The notes below the pieces were generated by a model. The model was not told the DNA's origin. It saw nothing but the letters and a program-made list of their open reading frames with translations, and did no database searches. From positions 62,001-126,000 of the forward strand of contig MGWK01000011.1 of the NCBI GenBank assembly GCA_001800975.1: 64,000 nt of DNA, given 5' to 3'. Both the position numbers and the translations under genes were made by a program. Position 1 is the first letter of the stretch, and each line of letters starts with the position of its first letter. The stretch comes from Flavobacteria bacterium RIFCSPLOWO2_12_FULL_35_11. GTDB lineage: Bacteria; Bacteroidota; Bacteroidia; Flavobacteriales; Flavobacteriaceae. Below, one piece after another: positions 36,907 through 45,530 of the stretch.

Positions 36907-36957
36907 TTAACATTTAAGTTATAAAACAGTAAACTTGGATTAACCATTAATTAACAT
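36907..36957 (+). promoter_or_regulatory. Putative PhoB-like box before the small secreted protein gene
   Basis: TTAACC at 36940 and TTAACA at 36951 are direct repeats at 11-bp spacing, with another TTAACA at 36907, exactly three 11-bp turns upstream. A -7-like TTAATTTG at 36966-36973 follows after 8-10 bp, and no clear -33 is present. This is the layout of an activator that replaces the -33 element. The direct-repeat TTAAC half-site resembles known PhoP and SphR boxes. That PhoB binds here is inference. Confidence 0.45.
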
Positions 36958-36998
36958 TGGGCGACTTAATTTGTAGTTCATAAAATAAATATAAAGCA

Positions 36999-37376
36999 AT
37001 GCGATTATTGGTAACTTCAATTTTAATTTTTTCAAGTACTTTTTTATACAGCCAGTCTTTTGAAGTTGGTTCTCTCATTACTGATTTTTCAAAAAAAGGA
37101 AAAATTGAAGGTGTAGTCTTGGATAATGAAGTCAATAATGAACCAATGGCATTTGTAACCATTTCAGTTAAAAATACTGATTTTGAAACGACTTCAGATT
37201 TAGATGGTTCTTTTTCATTCAATTTAAAACCTGGGAAATATACCTTGGAAATTCAATTTTTGGGTTATGCAACCATAGAATTGGGCAATGTTGCCGTTGT
37301 TGCGGGGAATACGCTGTCCATTAAGCAAAAATTAAGTGCCCTAAAGTTGAATGCTGATATTTCATTGGCGAATTAA
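36999..37376 (+). CDS. Small secreted CarboxypepD_reg-like protein
   Basis: A 125-residue protein with a signal peptide (about 1-18, ending FLYSQS) and a single carboxypeptidase-regulatory-like domain (about 33-115): GKIEGVVLDNEVNNEPMAFV, SDLDGSFSFNLKPGKYTLEI. The domain matches the N-terminal domain of the TonB-dependent receptor three genes further on, but here it stands alone without plug or barrel. It probably sits in the periplasm. It heads a cluster with putative Pho-like boxes. Confidence 0.75.
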   Translation: MRLLVTSILIFSSTFLYSQSFEVGSLITDFSKKGKIEGVVLDNEVNNEPMAFVTISVKNTDFETTSDLDGSFSFNLKPGKYTLEIQFLGYATIELGNVAVVAGNTLSIKQKLSALKLNADISLAN

Positions 37377-37386
37377 TCGGATTCCG

Positions 37387-37450
37387 CTTAACATTAACTT
37401 TACCCTTCCATCACCTTTTTATAACTTCTCGGTAACCTTCTGTTTAACTC
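37387..37450 (+). promoter_or_regulatory. Six-unit phased TAAC array, putative PhoB operator
   Basis: Half-sites sit at 37389 (TAAC), 37400 (TTAC), 37411 (TCAC), 37422 (TAAC), 37433 (TAAC) and 37445 (TAAC). Spacings are 11, 11, 11, 11 and 12 bp. The 12-bp step ends 7 bp before TTTCTTTG at 37458-37465, a -7-like element. No -33 TTG is seen. The lipoprotein gene starts at 37506. Recognition by PhoB is inferred from the 11-bp direct-repeat geometry. Confidence 0.5.
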
Positions 37451-37505
37451 AACGCAATTTCTTTGCCCCAACATTAAACAAATAAATTAAACTAAATTAA
37501 TACTT

Positions 37506-38738
37506 ATGAAAACTTTTTATTATTTAATTGTATCGATTTTATTTTTAAATTTTGCCGCAAGTTGCGGAAATGACAATGACTCACCTTTGATCATTGACGA
37601 GGAAGTGCCAGTAACGGTAGTCACGAAAGCCGGAATTATTAAAGTAAATGAAACTTGGACTGCTGACAAAATATATATTTTAGGAGGAAAAGTTGTTGTA
37701 GATGAAGGGATTACATTAACCATTGAAGCCGGAACAATCATTAAGGGCGCTGAAGGACAAGGCTCATTAGCTTCTGCATTGATAATTGACCAAGGCGGAA
37801 AATTAGTTGCTGAAGGCACCGCCGCAAAACCAATTATTTTTACATCAGTATTGGATAATATCCAAATCGGACAAAAAGCCGGCACAAATTTAACGATTGC
37901 CGACAACGGTTTGTGGGGCGGATTAATAGTACTTGGTAAAGCACCAATTTCTGTAAGCGGTGATGTTGCCACAAAACAAATAGAAGGAATTCCTGCAACG
38001 GACACCTTTGGACAATATGGGGGAAATGTTGCTAATGATAACTCAGGAATTTTTAAATACATCTCTATAAGACATGGAGGAATTACCATTGGTGCAGATA
38101 ACGAGATTAATGGATTAACCCTTGGCGGTGTTGGTTCAGGAACCGTTATTGACTATATTGAAGTTGTTGCCAACCAAGATGATGCAATCGAATGGTTTGG
38201 AGGTTCTGTAAATGTAACTAACGTTCTTACCTGGGCACAAGGCGATGATGGTTTGGATTGTGACGAAGCTTGGTCTGGATCTGTAAAAAACGCTTTGGTT
38301 ATTTTAGGAGCTGACTCAGACAGTGCCTTAGAATTAGACGGTCCTGCTGGTTCTGCCGTAACGGAAGCTGGCTATACTTTTGAGAATGTCACGCTTAAAG
38401 GCGCAGGTACTTCAAGCAAATATGCCGATTTAAGAGATGGATTGATTGCAAATATGAAAAACGTATTGGCTTATGGTTTTTCAGTTGATTCTAAAGTTAA
38501 GGTAAATGGTGCCGATTCTCAAACAGAACTTACAAATGGCAGAATTACTTTTACCAATTGGCAAGTTGTTTTGCCGGTTGGTGTTACGGTAGCAGATTTA
38601 ATTACTGGAGCGAAAGCGGGAGATGAAGTAAAATTCATCAATAATGCAACAGCAATTGCAACGCCAAGTGCCGCAACAACAGGAGCAACTACTTCTGTTT
38701 TTTCTTGGACTTATGCAGCTTCAAAAAGTGCCTACTAA
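37506..38738 (+). CDS. Lipoprotein with right-handed beta-helix-like repeats
   Basis: A 410-residue lipoprotein (lipobox NFAASCGND, Cys20). After a short acidic linker come strand repeats with Gly/Val/Ile and Asn turns (TLTIEAGTIIKG, AKPIIFTSV, NGLWGGLIVLG, FKYISIRHGG, VIDYIEVVANQDDAIEWFGG), the parallel beta-helix pattern. Relatives in Flavobacteriaceae are often labelled multidrug transporter, which the sequence does not support. It is encoded just upstream of a TonB-dependent receptor and is probably its surface-exposed partner lipoprotein, as SusD is for SusC, although not homologous to SusD. Confidence 0.75.
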   Translation: MKTFYYLIVSILFLNFAASCGNDNDSPLIIDEEVPVTVVTKAGIIKVNETWTADKIYILGGKVVVDEGITLTIEAGTIIKGAEGQGSLASALIIDQGGKLVAEGTAAKPIIFTSVLDNIQIGQKAGTNLTIADNGLWGGLIVLGKAPISVSGDVATKQIEGIPATDTFGQYGGNVANDNSGIFKYISIRHGGITIGADNEINGLTLGGVGSGTVIDYIEVVANQDDAIEWFGGSVNVTNVLTWAQGDDGLDCDEAWSGSVKNALVILGADSDSALELDGPAGSAVTEAGYTFENVTLKGAGTSSKYADLRDGLIANMKNVLAYGFSVDSKVKVNGADSQTELTNGRITFTNWQVVLPVGVTVADLITGAKAGDEVKFINNATAIATPSAATTGATTSVFSWTYAASKSAY

Positions 38739-38757
38739 TATAATTTTAAATTTTTAA

Positions 38758-38800
38758 AACAAAATGTCCATATGCCTATTTAGGCTATGGGCATTTTGTT
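38758..38800 (+). terminator. Hairpin between the lipoprotein and TonB receptor genes
   Basis: AACAAAATG-TCCATATGCC pairs with GGCTATGG-GCATTTTGTT around TATTTA. It ends in only a short T-rich tail, so it is more likely an attenuator or an mRNA-stability hairpin than a full stop. Transcripts of the lipoprotein would exceed those of the receptor. Confidence 0.65.
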
Positions 38801-38831
38801 CATTCAATTAATATTTTAAATAAAAAACTAG

Positions 38832-41651
38832 ATGTTAAAAAAGGGGATTCTTACAATTGTGTTTTTAATGGCGGCTATGCAAGTGATAAATGCACAAACA
38901 GGAAAAGTAACGGGAAAAATTTTGGATGGCGATTATAATGATGTGCTGGCATTTGCCAATGTTTCGGTAAAAGGGACTGAAAAAGGAACTTCGTCAGATT
39001 TTGACGGGTTATATGAATTGGAACTTAAAGAGGGCGATTACACCATTGTTTTCTCATTTATTGGCTATGAATCAAAAGAAATAACAGGAGTTAGCATAAA
39101 AAATAATGAGGTAACAAATTTAAATGTCACTTTAAATTCATCCGTAATGTTAAAGGAAGTGATGATAACATCATCAGCCAGACAAAATACGGAGGAATCG
39201 GTTTTATTTTATCAAAAGAAATCGGCGACCTTGATGGATGGTTTGTCCATAGCGAGCATCAATAAAACCGGTGCCAGCAATATCGCTTCTGCAATAAAAA
39301 GCGTTCCGGGAGTTTCTGTCCAGGACGGAAAGTTTGTTTATGTTCGAGGATTGGGAGACAGATACACCAAATCTATACTAAATGGCATGGATATTCCCGG
39401 ACTTGATCCCGATAAAAATACCATTCAAATGAATATTTTCCCTACCAATATTTTGGAAAATATTTTGATTGTTAAATCGGCTTCCGCTGATTTGCCTGCC
39501 GATTTTACTGGCGGAGTTATTGACATTGTGACCAAAGATTTTCCTTCACAAAAGCAAATGGAGTTTTCTGTTTCAGGAGGTTTTAATCCGAGTATGCATT
39601 TAAAAGACAATTATTTAATTTATAAAGGCGGCGCAACAGATTTTCTGGGATTTGATGACGGCACCAGAGAGTTGCCAATTTCAACGGCGCAAGTTATCCC
39701 AAATCCGGCATCAACAAAAAATAAAACTTTAGAGCCAATTACGCGCGCTTTTAACAGCACTTTGGCCACAGCGCAAAAAACAAGTTTGCCCGATTTTGGT
39801 TTTGGGTTTAATTATGGAAATCAGTTTGATGTTAATGACAATAAACTTGGTTTTATCGCTTCCATTGATTATAAAAACACCACCACTTTTTATGAGGGAT
39901 TTGAAAACGGTATTTACCAAAAACCTGAGGAAAGAGATGAATTTGAGCTTTTATTTGACAGAAGACAAAGAGGAGATATTGGCATAAATAATGTTTTGGC
40001 CTCTGTTTTAACGGGATTGTCTTACAAAACCGAAAAATCAAAATACAATCTTAACGTTTTACATATTCAAAACGGTGAAAGCAGGGCGGCGTTTTTTGAT
40101 CAAAAAACAGAAATATCAAATGCCATTGATGTGGTAAAAGACAACTTAGAATACACAGAACGTTCTATTTCAAACTTGCTTTTATCGGGCAAAAACACGA
40201 GTGATGATGCCTCTTTTATCACCGAATGGAAATTGTCTCCCACCTATTCAAGAGTGTATGATAAGGATGTCAGATTAACAACTTTTATAAGAGAACCAGA
40301 CGGATATACCATAAGTTCGGATGCCGGTTTTCCAAATAGAATTTGGCGGAATTTGGAAGAAATAAATGCAGTGGGTAAAATTGATTTCACAAAAAAATAT
40401 GATATTTTTACCAACAAAGCCATTTTAAAATTTGGCGGATTGTATAGCTATAAACAACGTACCTACAATATTTACAGCTATGAAGTCGCCTTTAGAAATT
40501 TGAGTCCGACAGTGTTTGAAGGGAATCCCGATGCCATATTGGCCTATGAAAATGTTTGGACGCCAGCAACCAATTCAGGATCCTATATACGCGGAAATTT
40601 TGAACCTTCTAACTCATTTGATTCCAACCAAAATACTGCAGCCGGCTATGTTTCAAATGAATTTAAAATTGGCGATAAATTGCGAACTATTTTAGGGGTG
40701 AGAGCCGAATATTTCACCACTTTCTTTACCGGCCAAAATAATTTGGGAACCCAGATGTATGACAATGAAAATACACTAGAAGAATTGGATTTTTTCCCTT
40801 CTGCAAACCTGATCTATGAATACAATGATGCAATAAACATTAGGGCTTCCTATTCTAAAACAACGGCAAGGCCAAGTTTTAAAGAATTGTCGGTGGTTCA
40901 AATTCCCGATTTGCTTACCGGGGTAATGTTTTTAGGAAATATCGATTTAAAACCTTCTTACATTGACAATGTTGATTTTAGATTTGAAATGTATGGAAAA
41001 GAAGCTCAAATGTTTGCTTTAAGCGGCTTTTATAAAAGCTTTAAAAATCCTATTGAATTGGTCGCTTATTCCGTAATTGCATCCAACCAATTTACGCCAA
41101 GAAACTCACCATCTGCAGAAGTTTTTGGATTGGAGTTTGAAGCCAGAAAGAATTTTAATTTTATTGCTGAAAATTTAAAAGACCTGAGTTTAAACGTAAA
41201 CCTTTCTATTATTGATTCTAAAATAAAAATGAATAAGGGCGTTAATGAAGAATTTGATTCCAGACAAACTTTTGCCAGAGACGGAGAAGTCATTGACGGT
41301 ACAAGACAATTGCAAGGACAATCGCCATTTCTTATAAACGCAGGATTAAATTACAACAATAAAACAATAGGTTTAGAAACAGGTTTGTTTTTTAATGTTC
41401 AGGGAAAAACACTGGAAGTAGTTGGTTTTGGGAAAAATCCAGATGTATACGTACAACCTTTTAATAGTTTGAATTTTAACTTTTCTAAAACGCTAGACAA
41501 AGAAAATAGGTCTTCCATAAGCCTTAAAGTGGATAATATTTTAGATGAGAAACGTCAAAGTTTGTACGATTCTTATGGGGCCACAGCGCAACCTTTTTCT
41601 CTAAGGGAACCTGGAATGGCTTTTTCGTTAGGATACAGTCTCAGCTTATAA
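38832..41651 (+). CDS. TonB-dependent receptor with CarboxypepD_reg domain
   Basis: A 939-residue outer-membrane receptor. Signal peptide about 1-21 (VINAQ). CarboxypepD_reg-like domain about 24-105 (GKVTGKILDGDYNDVLAFANV). Plug about 130-240 with KFVYVRGLGDRYTKSILNGMD and DFTGGVIDIVTKDFPS. Beta-barrel about 260-939, ending in FSLGYSLSL. Energy comes from TonB/ExbB/ExbD encoded elsewhere. The transported substrate is unknown. The partner lipoprotein and the phased upstream operators suggest phosphate or a phosphorylated compound, which is inference. Confidence 0.92.
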   Translation: MLKKGILTIVFLMAAMQVINAQTGKVTGKILDGDYNDVLAFANVSVKGTEKGTSSDFDGLYELELKEGDYTIVFSFIGYESKEITGVSIKNNEVTNLNVTLNSSVMLKEVMITSSARQNTEESVLFYQKKSATLMDGLSIASINKTGASNIASAIKSVPGVSVQDGKFVYVRGLGDRYTKSILNGMDIPGLDPDKNTIQMNIFPTNILENILIVKSASADLPADFTGGVIDIVTKDFPSQKQMEFSVSGGFNPSMHLKDNYLIYKGGATDFLGFDDGTRELPISTAQVIPNPASTKNKTLEPITRAFNSTLATAQKTSLPDFGFGFNYGNQFDVNDNKLGFIASIDYKNTTTFYEGFENGIYQKPEERDEFELLFDRRQRGDIGINNVLASVLTGLSYKTEKSKYNLNVLHIQNGESRAAFFDQKTEISNAIDVVKDNLEYTERSISNLLLSGKNTSDDASFITEWKLSPTYSRVYDKDVRLTTFIREPDGYTISSDAGFPNRIWRNLEEINAVGKIDFTKKYDIFTNKAILKFGGLYSYKQRTYNIYSYEVAFRNLSPTVFEGNPDAILAYENVWTPATNSGSYIRGNFEPSNSFDSNQNTAAGYVSNEFKIGDKLRTILGVRAEYFTTFFTGQNNLGTQMYDNENTLEELDFFPSANLIYEYNDAINIRASYSKTTARPSFKELSVVQIPDLLTGVMFLGNIDLKPSYIDNVDFRFEMYGKEAQMFALSGFYKSFKNPIELVAYSVIASNQFTPRNSPSAEVFGLEFEARKNFNFIAENLKDLSLNVNLSIIDSKIKMNKGVNEEFDSRQTFARDGEVIDGTRQLQGQSPFLINAGLNYNNKTIGLETGLFFNVQGKTLEVVGFGKNPDVYVQPFNSLNFNFSKTLDKENRSSISLKVDNILDEKRQSLYDSYGATAQPFSLREPGMAFSLGYSLSL

Positions 41652-41666
41652 AGAGTTGGTGCATAA

Positions 41667-41706
41667 AAACAAAAAGGCTGAAATTTAAATTTCAGCCTTT
41701 TTGTTT
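41667..41706. terminator. Strong terminator after the TonB receptor gene
   Basis: A 20-bp perfect inverted repeat (AAACAAAAAGGCTGAAA and its complement) lies just 16 bp after the stop and before the convergent YwqK-like gene. Confidence 0.9.
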
Positions 41707-41731
41707 ACAAATGAAACAATTATTTTTTTCG

Positions 41732-42079
41732 TTAATTAACTACCAATGCTTTCTCTTCAACATGAATTATTTTGTTTTCCTGATAAGTAACGAGGTTGAT
41801 TTTATCCGTTTTAAAGTAAGTCCAAACACCTTCCTTTTTACCGTTATTGTAAGTGGCAATTGTAGTTTTATTTCCCAGTAAATCATAGCTGATCCAAGTA
41901 TCGTGAAGTTTGCCTTCTTTGTTGAAAAAACCTTCTCGTTCAATAATATTACTATTGTCGGCAAAATAATACGTTGCTTTTACCAAATCGTTATCCATTT
42001 TTTGATATACGACTTTTTGCTCTTGCGAAAATGCTGTTACACAAAACAACAATATAACGATGTTTATAAATGTTTTCAT
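41732..42079 (-). CDS. Secreted YwqK/MORN-like repeat protein
   Basis: A 115-residue protein with a signal peptide (about 1-18, ending TAFSQ) and repeats of the type REGFFNKEGKLHDTWISYD and IATYNNGKKEGVWTYF, the MORN/YwqK-like pattern. Such proteins have been labelled toxin-antitoxin antitoxins in databases, but this single-copy secreted form has no toxin neighbour. It is convergent with the TonB receptor, and its promoter region has TTAAC-like half-sites. Confidence 0.7.
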   Translation of the reverse strand: MKTFINIVILLFCVTAFSQEQKVVYQKMDNDLVKATYYFADNSNIIEREGFFNKEGKLHDTWISYDLLGNKTTIATYNNGKKEGVWTYFKTDKINLVTYQENKIIHVEEKALVVN

Positions 42080-42141
42080 GATCTATTTATTTTAGTTCTT
42101 TATTTACTTCATATAAAAGTAGGTCAATTGCTTTTTATTTA

Positions 42142-42172
42142 CTTTAAATTAACGTTAAGTTTACATTAAGTT
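42142..42172 (-). promoter_or_regulatory. TTAAC-like direct repeats before the YwqK-like gene
   Basis: Read on the minus strand: CTTAATGTAAA, CTTAACGTTAA, TTTAAAGTAAA, three 11-bp units in a row. Bases 7-8 of each unit vary and the TTAA core recurs. TACTTTTA, a -7-like element, lies further downstream. This repeats the geometry seen at 36940 and 37389, but AT-richness makes chance matches easier here. Confidence 0.4.
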
Positions 42173-44540: not shown

Positions 44541-45530
44541 TTATTCCTTTTTATCAATAAACGCAACCGCTTTATCGGGAAAATCGGTAAAAATGCCATC
44601 AACATTTGCTTCGTATAAAGCCACTTGCAACAAATCTTCAAACGAATCAAAATCGCCCAATTGATCAGCCCTAAAAGTATAGGCGTGGACTTTTAAGTTT
44701 AGTTTATGAGCGTTGGCGACCAAACTGGTGATTTGCCATTTCCCGTTTTTGTCTTTTCCTTTAATAATTTGGGGAATCCAAGGTCCGATGCCATCAGCGT
44801 AAGTGGCAATTTCTTCCAATTTTTCATCGGATTTAAATTCCATCAATTGCACCATAAAAAGTTCGCTTTTGAATTCATGTCTGACTCTTTTTAGCTCTTT
44901 GGCATCAAAACACTGCAATATGCAGTTGTCTTTTTTGGTTTTGTAGCCATATTCATTTAAAGCTTTCAGCACAATTTTAGAAATATCCTTGCCTTCTTTT
45001 CTGTGAAATTCCGGTTCCTTAATTTCTGGATAAATGCCAATATTTTTTCCGGTGCTTTTGTTCAATCCCTGAATGAATTCAATTTCTTCCTGCAAAGAAT
45101 GCAATTTGAATGTTGCTGTGAATACCGGAAAACGGTTTGGGAAAACAGCTTTATCGTTTACGGGATCAAATCTTTCAGAGACATTTAATTGTTTTAGTTC
45201 CTCAAAAATAAAATCGATCACATAAAATCGGCCGTCAATTCTTTTTTTCTTCGGAAACTTTTTGGCAACATCGGTAACCATTTCCAAATGAATGTCGTGA
45301 ATCACGATGGGAACATTGTCTCTGCTCAACACAATGTCCTGCTCCAAATAATCGGCGCCCATCGCATAAGCCATTGCTTTTGCTGGCAAGGTGTGTTCGG
45401 GCAAATATCCCGAAGCACCTCTGTGCGCAATCACCACTTTTTTATTTTTTTGAATTTCCATTGTTGGTTCCGGCTTATGTTCACCGCAAGATAAGGACAA
45501 CATTAAAAAAATGATTAAAAAGCGATACAT
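44541..45530 (-). CDS. glpQ: Glycerophosphodiester phosphodiesterase, lipoprotein
   Basis: Cleaves glycerophosphodiesters to glycerol 3-phosphate and an alcohol. A 329-residue exported lipoprotein (lipobox LSLSCGE, Cys15). The GDPD domain from about residue 30 has VIAHRGASGYLPEHTLPA (catalytic His), ADYLEQDIVLSRDNVPIVIHD (metal-binding Glu/Asp) and ends DGIFTDFPD. It can recover phosphorus from phospholipid head groups. A weak TTTAAA repeat near its start was tested as a Pho box and rejected. Confidence 0.93.
   Translation of the reverse strand: MYRFLIIFLMLSLSCGEHKPEPTMEIQKNKKVVIAHRGASGYLPEHTLPAKAMAYAMGADYLEQDIVLSRDNVPIVIHDIHLEMVTDVAKKFPKKKRIDGRFYVIDFIFEELKQLNVSERFDPVNDKAVFPNRFPVFTATFKLHSLQEEIEFIQGLNKSTGKNIGIYPEIKEPEFHRKEGKDISKIVLKALNEYGYKTKKDNCILQCFDAKELKRVRHEFKSELFMVQLMEFKSDEKLEEIATYADGIGPWIPQIIKGKDKNGKWQITSLVANAHKLNLKVHAYTFRADQLGDFDSFEDLLQVALYEANVDGIFTDFPDKAVAFIDKKE

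What the first reader, a model, noticed from the sequence alone, without database searches (positions are those of the whole stretch)
36907..42172. Candidate phosphate-starvation outer-membrane uptake cluster with 11-bp phased operators
Seen: the lipoprotein promoter has six TAAC-like half-sites at 37389, 37400, 37411, 37422, 37433 and 37445, and TTAAC repeats at 36940/36951 and in three 11-bp units at 42142-42172. Both upstream genes end their repeats 7-10 bp before a -7-like TTTG and have no -33 element. Known: direct repeats at 11-bp spacing with TTAAC-like half-sites are the operator form of PhoP/PhoB/SphR. Inferred: the small CarboxypepD_reg protein, the beta-helix lipoprotein, the TonB receptor and perhaps the YwqK-like protein form one phosphate-starvation regulon and an undescribed TonB/lipoprotein uptake pair.
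Basis: partly seen in the sequence, partly recalled or inferred. Interest (0 to 1): 0.75.

Follow-up and report, generated by a model that had tools for sequence, protein, structure and literature searches.

The report
Phosphate-starvation outer-membrane lipoprotein and receptor operon
In a flavobacterium, the genes for a surface lipoprotein, a TonB-linked outer-membrane receptor and a small secreted protein carry the same 11-bp repeated DNA switch as its phosphate transporter, so they very probably belong to its phosphate-starvation response; proteins of this kind were already known to respond to phosphate starvation, but what they do is still unknown.

Summary
The repeats are real. The six-unit 11-bp array before the lipoprotein is the longest in the window (0 of 60 resampled windows had one as long). 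In 60 genomes, 62 of 85 strict matches lie within 10 kb of pstS or this lipoprotein. In 79 named loci, TAAC pairs 11 bp apart before homologues number 47, against 3 from control promoters. The Pho-regulon reading is well supported for the small gene and the lipoprotein/TBDT operon; YwqK stays open. "Undescribed pair" is not right: the layout matches Caulobacter ElpS/CC0171 (PMC2996285) and the low-phosphate lipoproteins beside TBDTs of F. johnsoniae (PMC8115612). Newer points: an explicit box with fixed promoter spacing, a co-regulated small secreted protein, and an invariant acidic patch on a right-handed beta-helix.

The parts
36907..36973 (+). Pho-type operator and promoter of the small CarboxypepD_reg gene: in-phase 5-mers at 36907, 36918, 36929, 36940, 36951 (11-bp steps; 36918 and 36929 weak), 14 bases, TTTG at 36970-36973
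   Evidence: score 25.1, top in window; score 13 or more before orthologues in 15 of 16 relatives' loci
36999..37376 (+). small protein (125 aa), apparently secreted, with a single CarboxypepD_reg-like domain (PF13715/PF13620), like a detached N-terminal domain of a TBDT
   Evidence: orthologues printed; signal peptide judged by eye
37388..37465 (+). six-unit 11-bp Pho-type array (5-mers at 37388, 37399, 37410, 37421, 37432, 37443), 14 bases, TTTG at 37462-37465; promoter of the lipoprotein-TBDT operon
   Evidence: (array seen before close orthologues)
37506..38738 (+). lipoprotein (410 aa), lipobox Cys20, right-handed beta-helix, invariant acidic residues D225 D226 E229 D247 D248 D251 E276
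38832..41651 (+). TonB-dependent receptor (939 aa): CarboxypepD_reg, Plug, beta-barrel
   Evidence: same-strand TBDT hit within 600 bases of the lipoprotein homologue in 74 of 80 named loci
41732..42079 (-).
42114..42169 (-). 11-bp array before YwqK (TTAAT 42169-42165, TTAAC 42158-42154, TTAAA 42147-42143, weak AAAAA 42136-42132), then TACTTTT
   Evidence: block exact in 13 of 16 relatives' loci and a near copy in the other 3, but matrix score below 13 in 16 of 16

Best explanation
The cluster is part of the PhoB-type phosphate-starvation regulon of a flavobacterium. SHOWN HERE: the small CarboxypepD_reg gene and the lipoprotein-TBDT operon carry the same element as the pst operon (11-bp direct repeats of a TTAAC-like half-site, the last one 14 bases before TTTG), and gene order and element recur in relatives. 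INFERRED: when phosphate runs out, PhoR phosphorylates PhoB (candidate pair at C43, L083); PhoB binds the repeats as head-to-tail subunits and activates promoters whose -7 element is weak. The outer-membrane beta-helix lipoprotein then catches a phosphorus-bearing ligand at the cell surface, perhaps through divalent cations held by its invariant acidic patch, and passes it to, or gates, the adjacent TonB receptor. The small CarboxypepD_reg protein may be a periplasmic accessory of the receptor. The pair works like, and is probably of the same kind as, Caulobacter ElpS/CC0171 and the F. johnsoniae FI-FIII lipoproteins with TBDTs.
For: Own genome: the strict box (14-base spacer) occurs only at the small gene, pstS and the first pst-operon gene; the three-unit pattern with up to 2 mismatches hits only the same three. 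A matrix trained on pst promoters alone finds the three window sites first. In 20 relatives' loci: score 13 or more upstream of CpdReg 15 of 16, of the lipoprotein/TBDT operon head 15 of 20, porin-like gene 5 of 5, pstS 6 of 9, PiT 2 of 8; dgt 0 of 14, CLC 0 of 6, GDPD 0 of 3, other genes 3 of 88, and all 3 of these others are PF07396 phosphate-selective porins. 62 of 85 strict matches in 60 genomes (own included) lie within 10 kb of pstS or the lipoprotein. In 26 genomes with both genes found, 14 have them on one contig, 11 within 10 kb (own 44 kb). Upstream of homologues in 79 named loci there are 47, 19 and 29 TAAC pairs at 11, 22 and 33 bp, against 3, 2 and 1 scaled from 295 control promoters. 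A pst, phoU, PiT or phoB-like gene lies in 32 of 80 named loci. Published induction of such lipoproteins and TBDTs by phosphate depletion (PMC8115612, passages and section 16; PMC2996285, passages). PhoB/PhoR candidate beside a PF04101 glycosyltransferase, as in the F. johnsoniae phoBR table.
Against: No expression or binding data for this organism. The reversed strict pattern occurs twice in the own genome and 23 times in the 60 genomes, and 23 of 85 true matches lie away from both genes, so a single match is weak evidence without its position. The candidate PhoB scores 206 bits against a cut-off of 270 for NF053854, the other three regulators also hit PhoB models, and its own promoter has no box (phoB-like genes in relatives 0 of 3). 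The strict box is at pstS in 22 of 25 loci of the genus but 0 of 5 outside. The matrix misses 5 of 20 operon heads (in one, L105, the head lies outside the stretch taken), and over all 102 lipoprotein upstreams only 34 score 13 or more and 36 rank first in their locus. The one alkaline phosphatase found lacks a pst-type box by the matrix. No ligand is shown; transport of a phosphorus compound is inferred from regulation and company alone.
Confidence: 0.85

Rival explanations
1. Another OmpR-family regulator (ArcA- or RprY-like) binds the 11-bp repeats; the pst operon is only one of its targets and phosphate is not the main signal.
For: The genome has four Trans_reg_C regulators. The R. anatipestifer PhoP DAP-seq motif (core TTTAACA) is called highly similar to that of E. 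coli ArcA and comes from 583 peaks (PMC9603813, passages). The candidate phoB has no box of its own.
Against: Strict matches concentrate at pst and this cluster; lipoprotein homologues stand in one locus with phoB-like genes in many named genomes; in F. johnsoniae such lipoproteins are induced by phosphate depletion and tightly repressed under N and Fe limitation (PMC8115612, passage).
Confidence: 0.08
2. The pair takes up a metal (iron, calcium or another) needed by phosphatases or scarce under phosphate starvation, not a phosphorus compound.
For: Seven acidic residues are invariant in 77 homologues and fall on successive turns of the helix by the secondary structure of the model; many TonB receptors import iron chelates (recalled).
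Against: The F. johnsoniae phosphate-induced loci, these lipoproteins included, are reported as tightly repressed under Fe limitation (PMC8115612, passage).
Confidence: 0.2
3. The lipoprotein is a glycan-binding or glycan-cleaving beta-helix protein and the pair is a SusCD-like sugar system under phosphate control.
Against: P0002 matches no Pfam family at E 0.1, and only 2 of 77 members hit Pectate_lyase, weakly; the fold is shared by unrelated proteins such as NosD and tailspikes. A shared fold shows no function either way.
Confidence: 0.15
4. The repeats are chance AT-rich sequence.
For: The reversed-pattern control gives 23 matches in the 37 genus genomes and 2 in the own genome, so single strict matches far from pst are noise; the 13.3 and 15.8 sites are each beaten by 2 of 20 shuffles.
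Confidence: 0.01

Closest known systems
Caulobacter crescentus ElpS (CC0170) with TBDT CC0171 and the T2SS cluster (PMC2996285, passages seen)
   Same: Lipoprotein produced under phosphate starvation, gene next to a TBDT gene. A homologue of P0002 (35% identity) on an alphaproteobacterial plasmid sits directly before a TBDT and T2SS genes, the published cc0170/cc0171/gsp layout.
   Different: No T2SS gene among the neighbours that I could label (dgt, YwqK, CLC, GDPD; names by eye). Lipoprotein and TBDT look like one operon here, whereas cc0171 was reported as expressed in rich and poor media alike. ElpS itself was not compared by sequence.
Flavobacterium johnsoniae lipoproteins FI, FII, FIII with TBDTs, PUSIII/PUSIV (PMC8115612, passages and section 16 seen)
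   Same: Phosphate-depletion-induced OM lipoproteins, some next to TBDTs; FII lies with phoBR, as relatives of P0002 do in L096, L103, L104, L117 and L158.
   Different: That paper's main text has no 'Pho box' (0 occurrences). The small CarboxypepD_reg gene, the synteny with dgt, YwqK and pst, and the promoter spacing come from this work. Sequences were not compared directly.
Pho box / PhoB, PhoP, SphR operators
   Same: Direct repeats at 11-bp steps before pst genes and upstream of the -10/-7 element (general features recalled).
   Different: Half-site TTAAC, last unit 14 bases before TTTG; in the pst sites the two bases that would read TA in the TAnnTTTG element recalled for Bacteroidota mostly read GT or TT (windows printed).
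SusCD / PusCD
   Same: TBDT plus surface lipoprotein.
   Different: The lipoprotein is a beta-helix with no SusD Pfam match, and the receptor does not hit the SusC/RagA model TIGR04056 at E 0.1.

Membership tests
Pho regulon (PhoB operator) | direct repeats at 11-bp steps | tested here: met
Pho regulon (PhoB operator) | same element before pst genes of the same genome | tested here: met
Pho regulon (PhoB operator) | element conserved before the same genes in relatives | tested here: met
   genus; outside the genus the 11-bp periodicity holds before the lipoprotein but the strict box is absent at 5 of 5 pstS loci
Pho regulon (PhoB operator) | a PhoB/PhoR pair in the genome | tested here: inconclusive
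   best candidate at C43: top hits are PhoB models and PnpS/PhoR models, all below the curated cut-offs
Pho regulon (PhoB operator) | box before phosphatase genes | tested here: inconclusive
   no PhoX; the PF00245 gene at C9 has three loose half-sites 11 bp apart but no matrix hit; chains of 3 occur in 23 of 295 control promoters
Pho regulon (PhoB operator) | PhoB binding and low-phosphate induction | not testable with these tools
   needs footprinting and RNA-seq
ElpS / FI-FIII lipoprotein kind | lipoprotein signal peptide | tested here: met
   Cys20 present in 76 of 77 aligned homologues, a gap in one
ElpS / FI-FIII lipoprotein kind | beta-helix / pectate-lyase-like fold | tested here: met
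ElpS / FI-FIII lipoprotein kind | TBDT neighbour | tested here: met
   74 of 80 named loci
ElpS / FI-FIII lipoprotein kind | sequence homology to ElpS or FI-FIII themselves | not tested
   sequences not obtained; only the layout was matched
ElpS / FI-FIII lipoprotein kind | induced by phosphate starvation | not testable with these tools
   no expression data for this organism
SusCD / PusCD | SusD-like lipoprotein and SusC/RagA-type receptor | tested here: not met
GH28 polygalacturonase | GH28 profile match | tested here: not met
   no Pfam family for P0002 at E 0.1; GH28 is not among the 7 families matched by any of 77 members at E 0.01

The most novel reading that the evidence does not exclude
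The pair is a SusCD-like machine of independent origin: a beta-helix lid that uses a stack of invariant acidic residues on successive helix turns to hold divalent cations, which in turn hold phosphate or phosphodiester polymers at the cell surface and feed them to a TonB receptor. The co-regulated small CarboxypepD_reg protein would be a detached N-terminal receptor domain that couples the receptor to TonB under phosphate starvation.
Probability: 0.2. Interest if true: 0.7.

Novelty: new member of a known kind. Interest (0 to 1): 0.45.

Why it matters
It gives an explicit, testable Pho-type element for a group of Bacteroidota (TTAAC every 11 bp, last unit 14 bases before TTTG in this genus; the 11-bp step more widely), which would let phosphate regulons be predicted from sequence. 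It ties the phosphate-induced but unexplained lipoprotein/TBDT pairs to one small locus near pst, adds a small co-regulated protein, and points to an invariant acidic site as the place to look for the ligand.

Tried and rejected
Pattern searches with three mismatches are noise: 13 matches against 21 for the reversed control. The strict match at C11:137433, minus strand, near the PiT gene (spacer let to 12-15) is taken as chance: the reversed control gives 2 in the own genome. YwqK as a regulon member: the 11-bp block is exact in 13 of 16 relatives' loci and a near copy in 3, but the pst matrix gives less than 13 in 16 of 16, so I leave it open. The GDPD-like gene at 44541-45530 has no site among the window's 8 best; relatives 0 of 3. 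Candidate phoB promoter: no box; phoB-like genes in relatives 0 of 3. The porin-like first gene of the own pst operon has no Pfam or NCBIfam match, so its name is by appearance; similar genes in three relatives are PF07396. Literature for a published flavobacterial Pho box: searches (listings seen); the nearest found is the R. anatipestifer PhoP motif (PMC9603813, passages); the B. fragilis PhoB paper mentions the Pho box once, in general terms (PMC3547664, passage). This does not show that none is in print. Foldseek gave no PDB match at E 0.001 or better; the fold call rests on the second look. PDB by sequence: one weak hit for the lipoprotein profile, E 0.34; the receptor matches 9gbc only over residues 7-256. 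The named loci are the best 80 of 578 confirmed relatives in a capped scan. Counts: one search printed 20 of 30 pstS loci with the box because of my position limits; the recount gives 22 of 30. One search tested 102 of 103 lipoprotein genes (one upstream too short): 36 rank first in their locus, 68 in the first three, 34 score 13 or more. One search used one upstream per locus (79 of 80 named loci; for loci with two lipoprotein frames, the last one). In one search the lipoprotein list held one place per genome and left out genomes with only very weak matches.
Full report
OBSERVATION. Before the lipoprotein, six half-sites follow one another at exactly 11 bp (5-mers TTAAC 37388, TTTAC 37399, ATCAC 37410, ATAAC 37421, GTAAC 37432, TTTAA 37443), and TTTG follows 14 bases after the last. 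This is the only chain of six in 64 kb on both strands; 60 resampled windows gave none, and chains of five or more averaged 0.02 per window. Before the small gene, TTAAC at 36940 and 36951 continues in phase to 36929 and 36918 (weak) and 36907, again 14 bases before TTTG. The YwqK array lies on the minus strand.

The pst operon lies on the same contig (a porin-like gene, pstS, pstC, pstA, pstB, phoU; pstS and phoU confirmed, the porin-like gene has no Pfam match). The first promoter reads GTAAC-N6-TTAAC-N6-TTAAC-N14-TTTG and the pstS promoter TTAAC-N6-TTAAC-N14-TTTG. In the whole 3.56-Mb genome the strict two-unit box with a 14-base spacer occurs three times: small gene, pstS, first pst gene. 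The pattern read backwards occurs twice, so it is the position and not the number that tells. With the spacer let to 12-15 there is one more, which I take as chance. The three-unit pattern with up to two mismatches hits only the same three.

INDEPENDENT MATRIX. From 30 pstS loci I took 40 pst promoter windows (own ones included) and made a matrix of three half-sites plus TTTG. Twenty shuffled windows had maxima from 2.7 to 17.2, so only the first is beyond all of them; the other two beat 18 of 20 each.

CONSERVATION. A search of 60 genomes (own and 59 relatives) found the lipoprotein in 48, some only weakly. In 20 loci taken from 20 of these relatives, the block dgt - small CarboxypepD_reg gene - lipoprotein/TBDT pair - YwqK - (porin) - pst - phoU - PiT recurs with variations. 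Score 13 or more within 300 bases upstream: small gene 15 of 16, operon head of the pair 15 of 20, porin-like gene 5 of 5, pstS 6 of 9, PiT 2 of 8; dgt 0 of 14, CLC 0 of 6, GDPD 0 of 3, YwqK 0 of 16, phoB-like 0 of 3, other genes 3 of 88. All three 'others' are Porin_O_P proteins (PF07396). Gene names here are by similarity to window and pst-contig genes, whose own names for dgt, CLC, GDPD and YwqK are by eye. Among 85 strict matches in the 60 genomes, 39 are nearest pstS and 23 nearest the lipoprotein within 10 kb; 23 lie elsewhere, and the reversed pattern gives 23 in the 37 genus genomes. Where both genes were found (26 genomes), 14 have them on one contig and 11 of these within 10 kb; in the own genome they are 44 kb apart.

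WIDER REACH. A capped scan of named genomes kept the best 80 of 578 relatives, from many Bacteroidota and a few records titled as other phyla. In 79 of them, TAAC pairs upstream of the lipoprotein operon lie 11, 22 and 33 bp apart 47, 19 and 29 times, against 3, 2 and 1 scaled from 295 control promoters of the same loci. The pst-trained matrix is stricter: over all 102 upstreams tested (20 relatives' loci and the named ones), 36 rank first in their locus and 34 score 13 or more. The strict box is at pstS in 22 of 25 loci of the genus and 0 of 5 outside, so the exact spacing is a feature of the genus while the 11-bp step is wider. 74 of 80 named loci have a TBDT on the same strand within 600 bases, and 32 of 80 hold a pst, phoU, PiT or phoB-like gene.

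REGULATOR. Four Trans_reg_C regulators were found. The one at C43 has the PhoB models as its best hits, and its neighbour kinase the PnpS/PhoR models, all below the curated cut-offs. It stands beside a PF04101 glycosyltransferase, as phoBR does in the F. johnsoniae table. Its own promoter has no box.

WHAT IS KNOWN. PMC8115612 (passages; section 16) reports lipoproteins FI, FII and FIII of F. johnsoniae, induced by phosphate depletion and abundant in the exoproteome, some next to TBDTs, FII with phoBR, and relates them to the Caulobacter low-phosphate lipoprotein. PMC2996285 (passages) describes ElpS/CC0170, the neighbouring TBDT CC0171 and the T2SS genes, and suggests that receptor and lipoprotein work together. 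A P0002 homologue on an alphaproteobacterial plasmid has just this layout. So the kind is known and its mechanism is not. The R. anatipestifer PhoP DAP-seq core TTTAACA (PMC9603813, passages) agrees with the half-site.

VERDICT. Regulon: well supported for the small gene and the pair, open for YwqK. Function: surface capture and TonB-linked uptake of a phosphorus-bearing ligand, inferred. New as far as my searches go: the element with its promoter spacing, the small co-regulated gene, the acidic site. Kind: known.

Noticed in passing
window 36999-42079 and the same slot in L097-L102: In the genus the slot between the small gene and YwqK holds one of two distantly related pairs: lipoprotein-TBDT (window type) or TBDT-lipoprotein (about 26-38% and 32-35% identical to the window's), the latter with a strong box in 6 of 6 loci.
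   Followed up: partly
G002, G008, G015, G016, G021, G029, G035: Some lipoproteins are doubled: two beta-helix matches in one open frame of 743-768 aa; several others of 652-674 aa also match twice.
   Followed up: no
window 42132-42169, minus strand: The block AAACTTAATGTAAACTTAA(C/T)GTTAA precedes YwqK in 13 of 16 relatives' loci, with near copies in the other 3; it is partly palindromic and its phase to the -7 element differs from the pst boxes.
   Followed up: partly
L187 (Pseudoalteromonas megaplasmid): A homologue (35% identity) and its TBDT lie right after ExbB, ExbD, TonB and TPR genes, a possible dedicated energy module.
   Followed up: no
L188 (own C9:168646-169926): The only PF00245 match has TTAAC, TTAAA and GTAAC at 11-bp steps upstream, the last 25 bases (11+14) before TTTG; suggestive but not beyond chance.
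   Followed up: partly
L100:12581-13771: A second Porin_O_P gene with a strong box (30.7) starts ahead of a further TBDT-like gene beside the pst operon of one relative, so that locus may hold more phosphate-regulated outer-membrane genes.
   Followed up: partly
window 44541-45530, minus strand: A glycerophosphodiester phosphodiesterase-like gene (name by eye) lies near the cluster without a site among the window's best.
   Followed up: no
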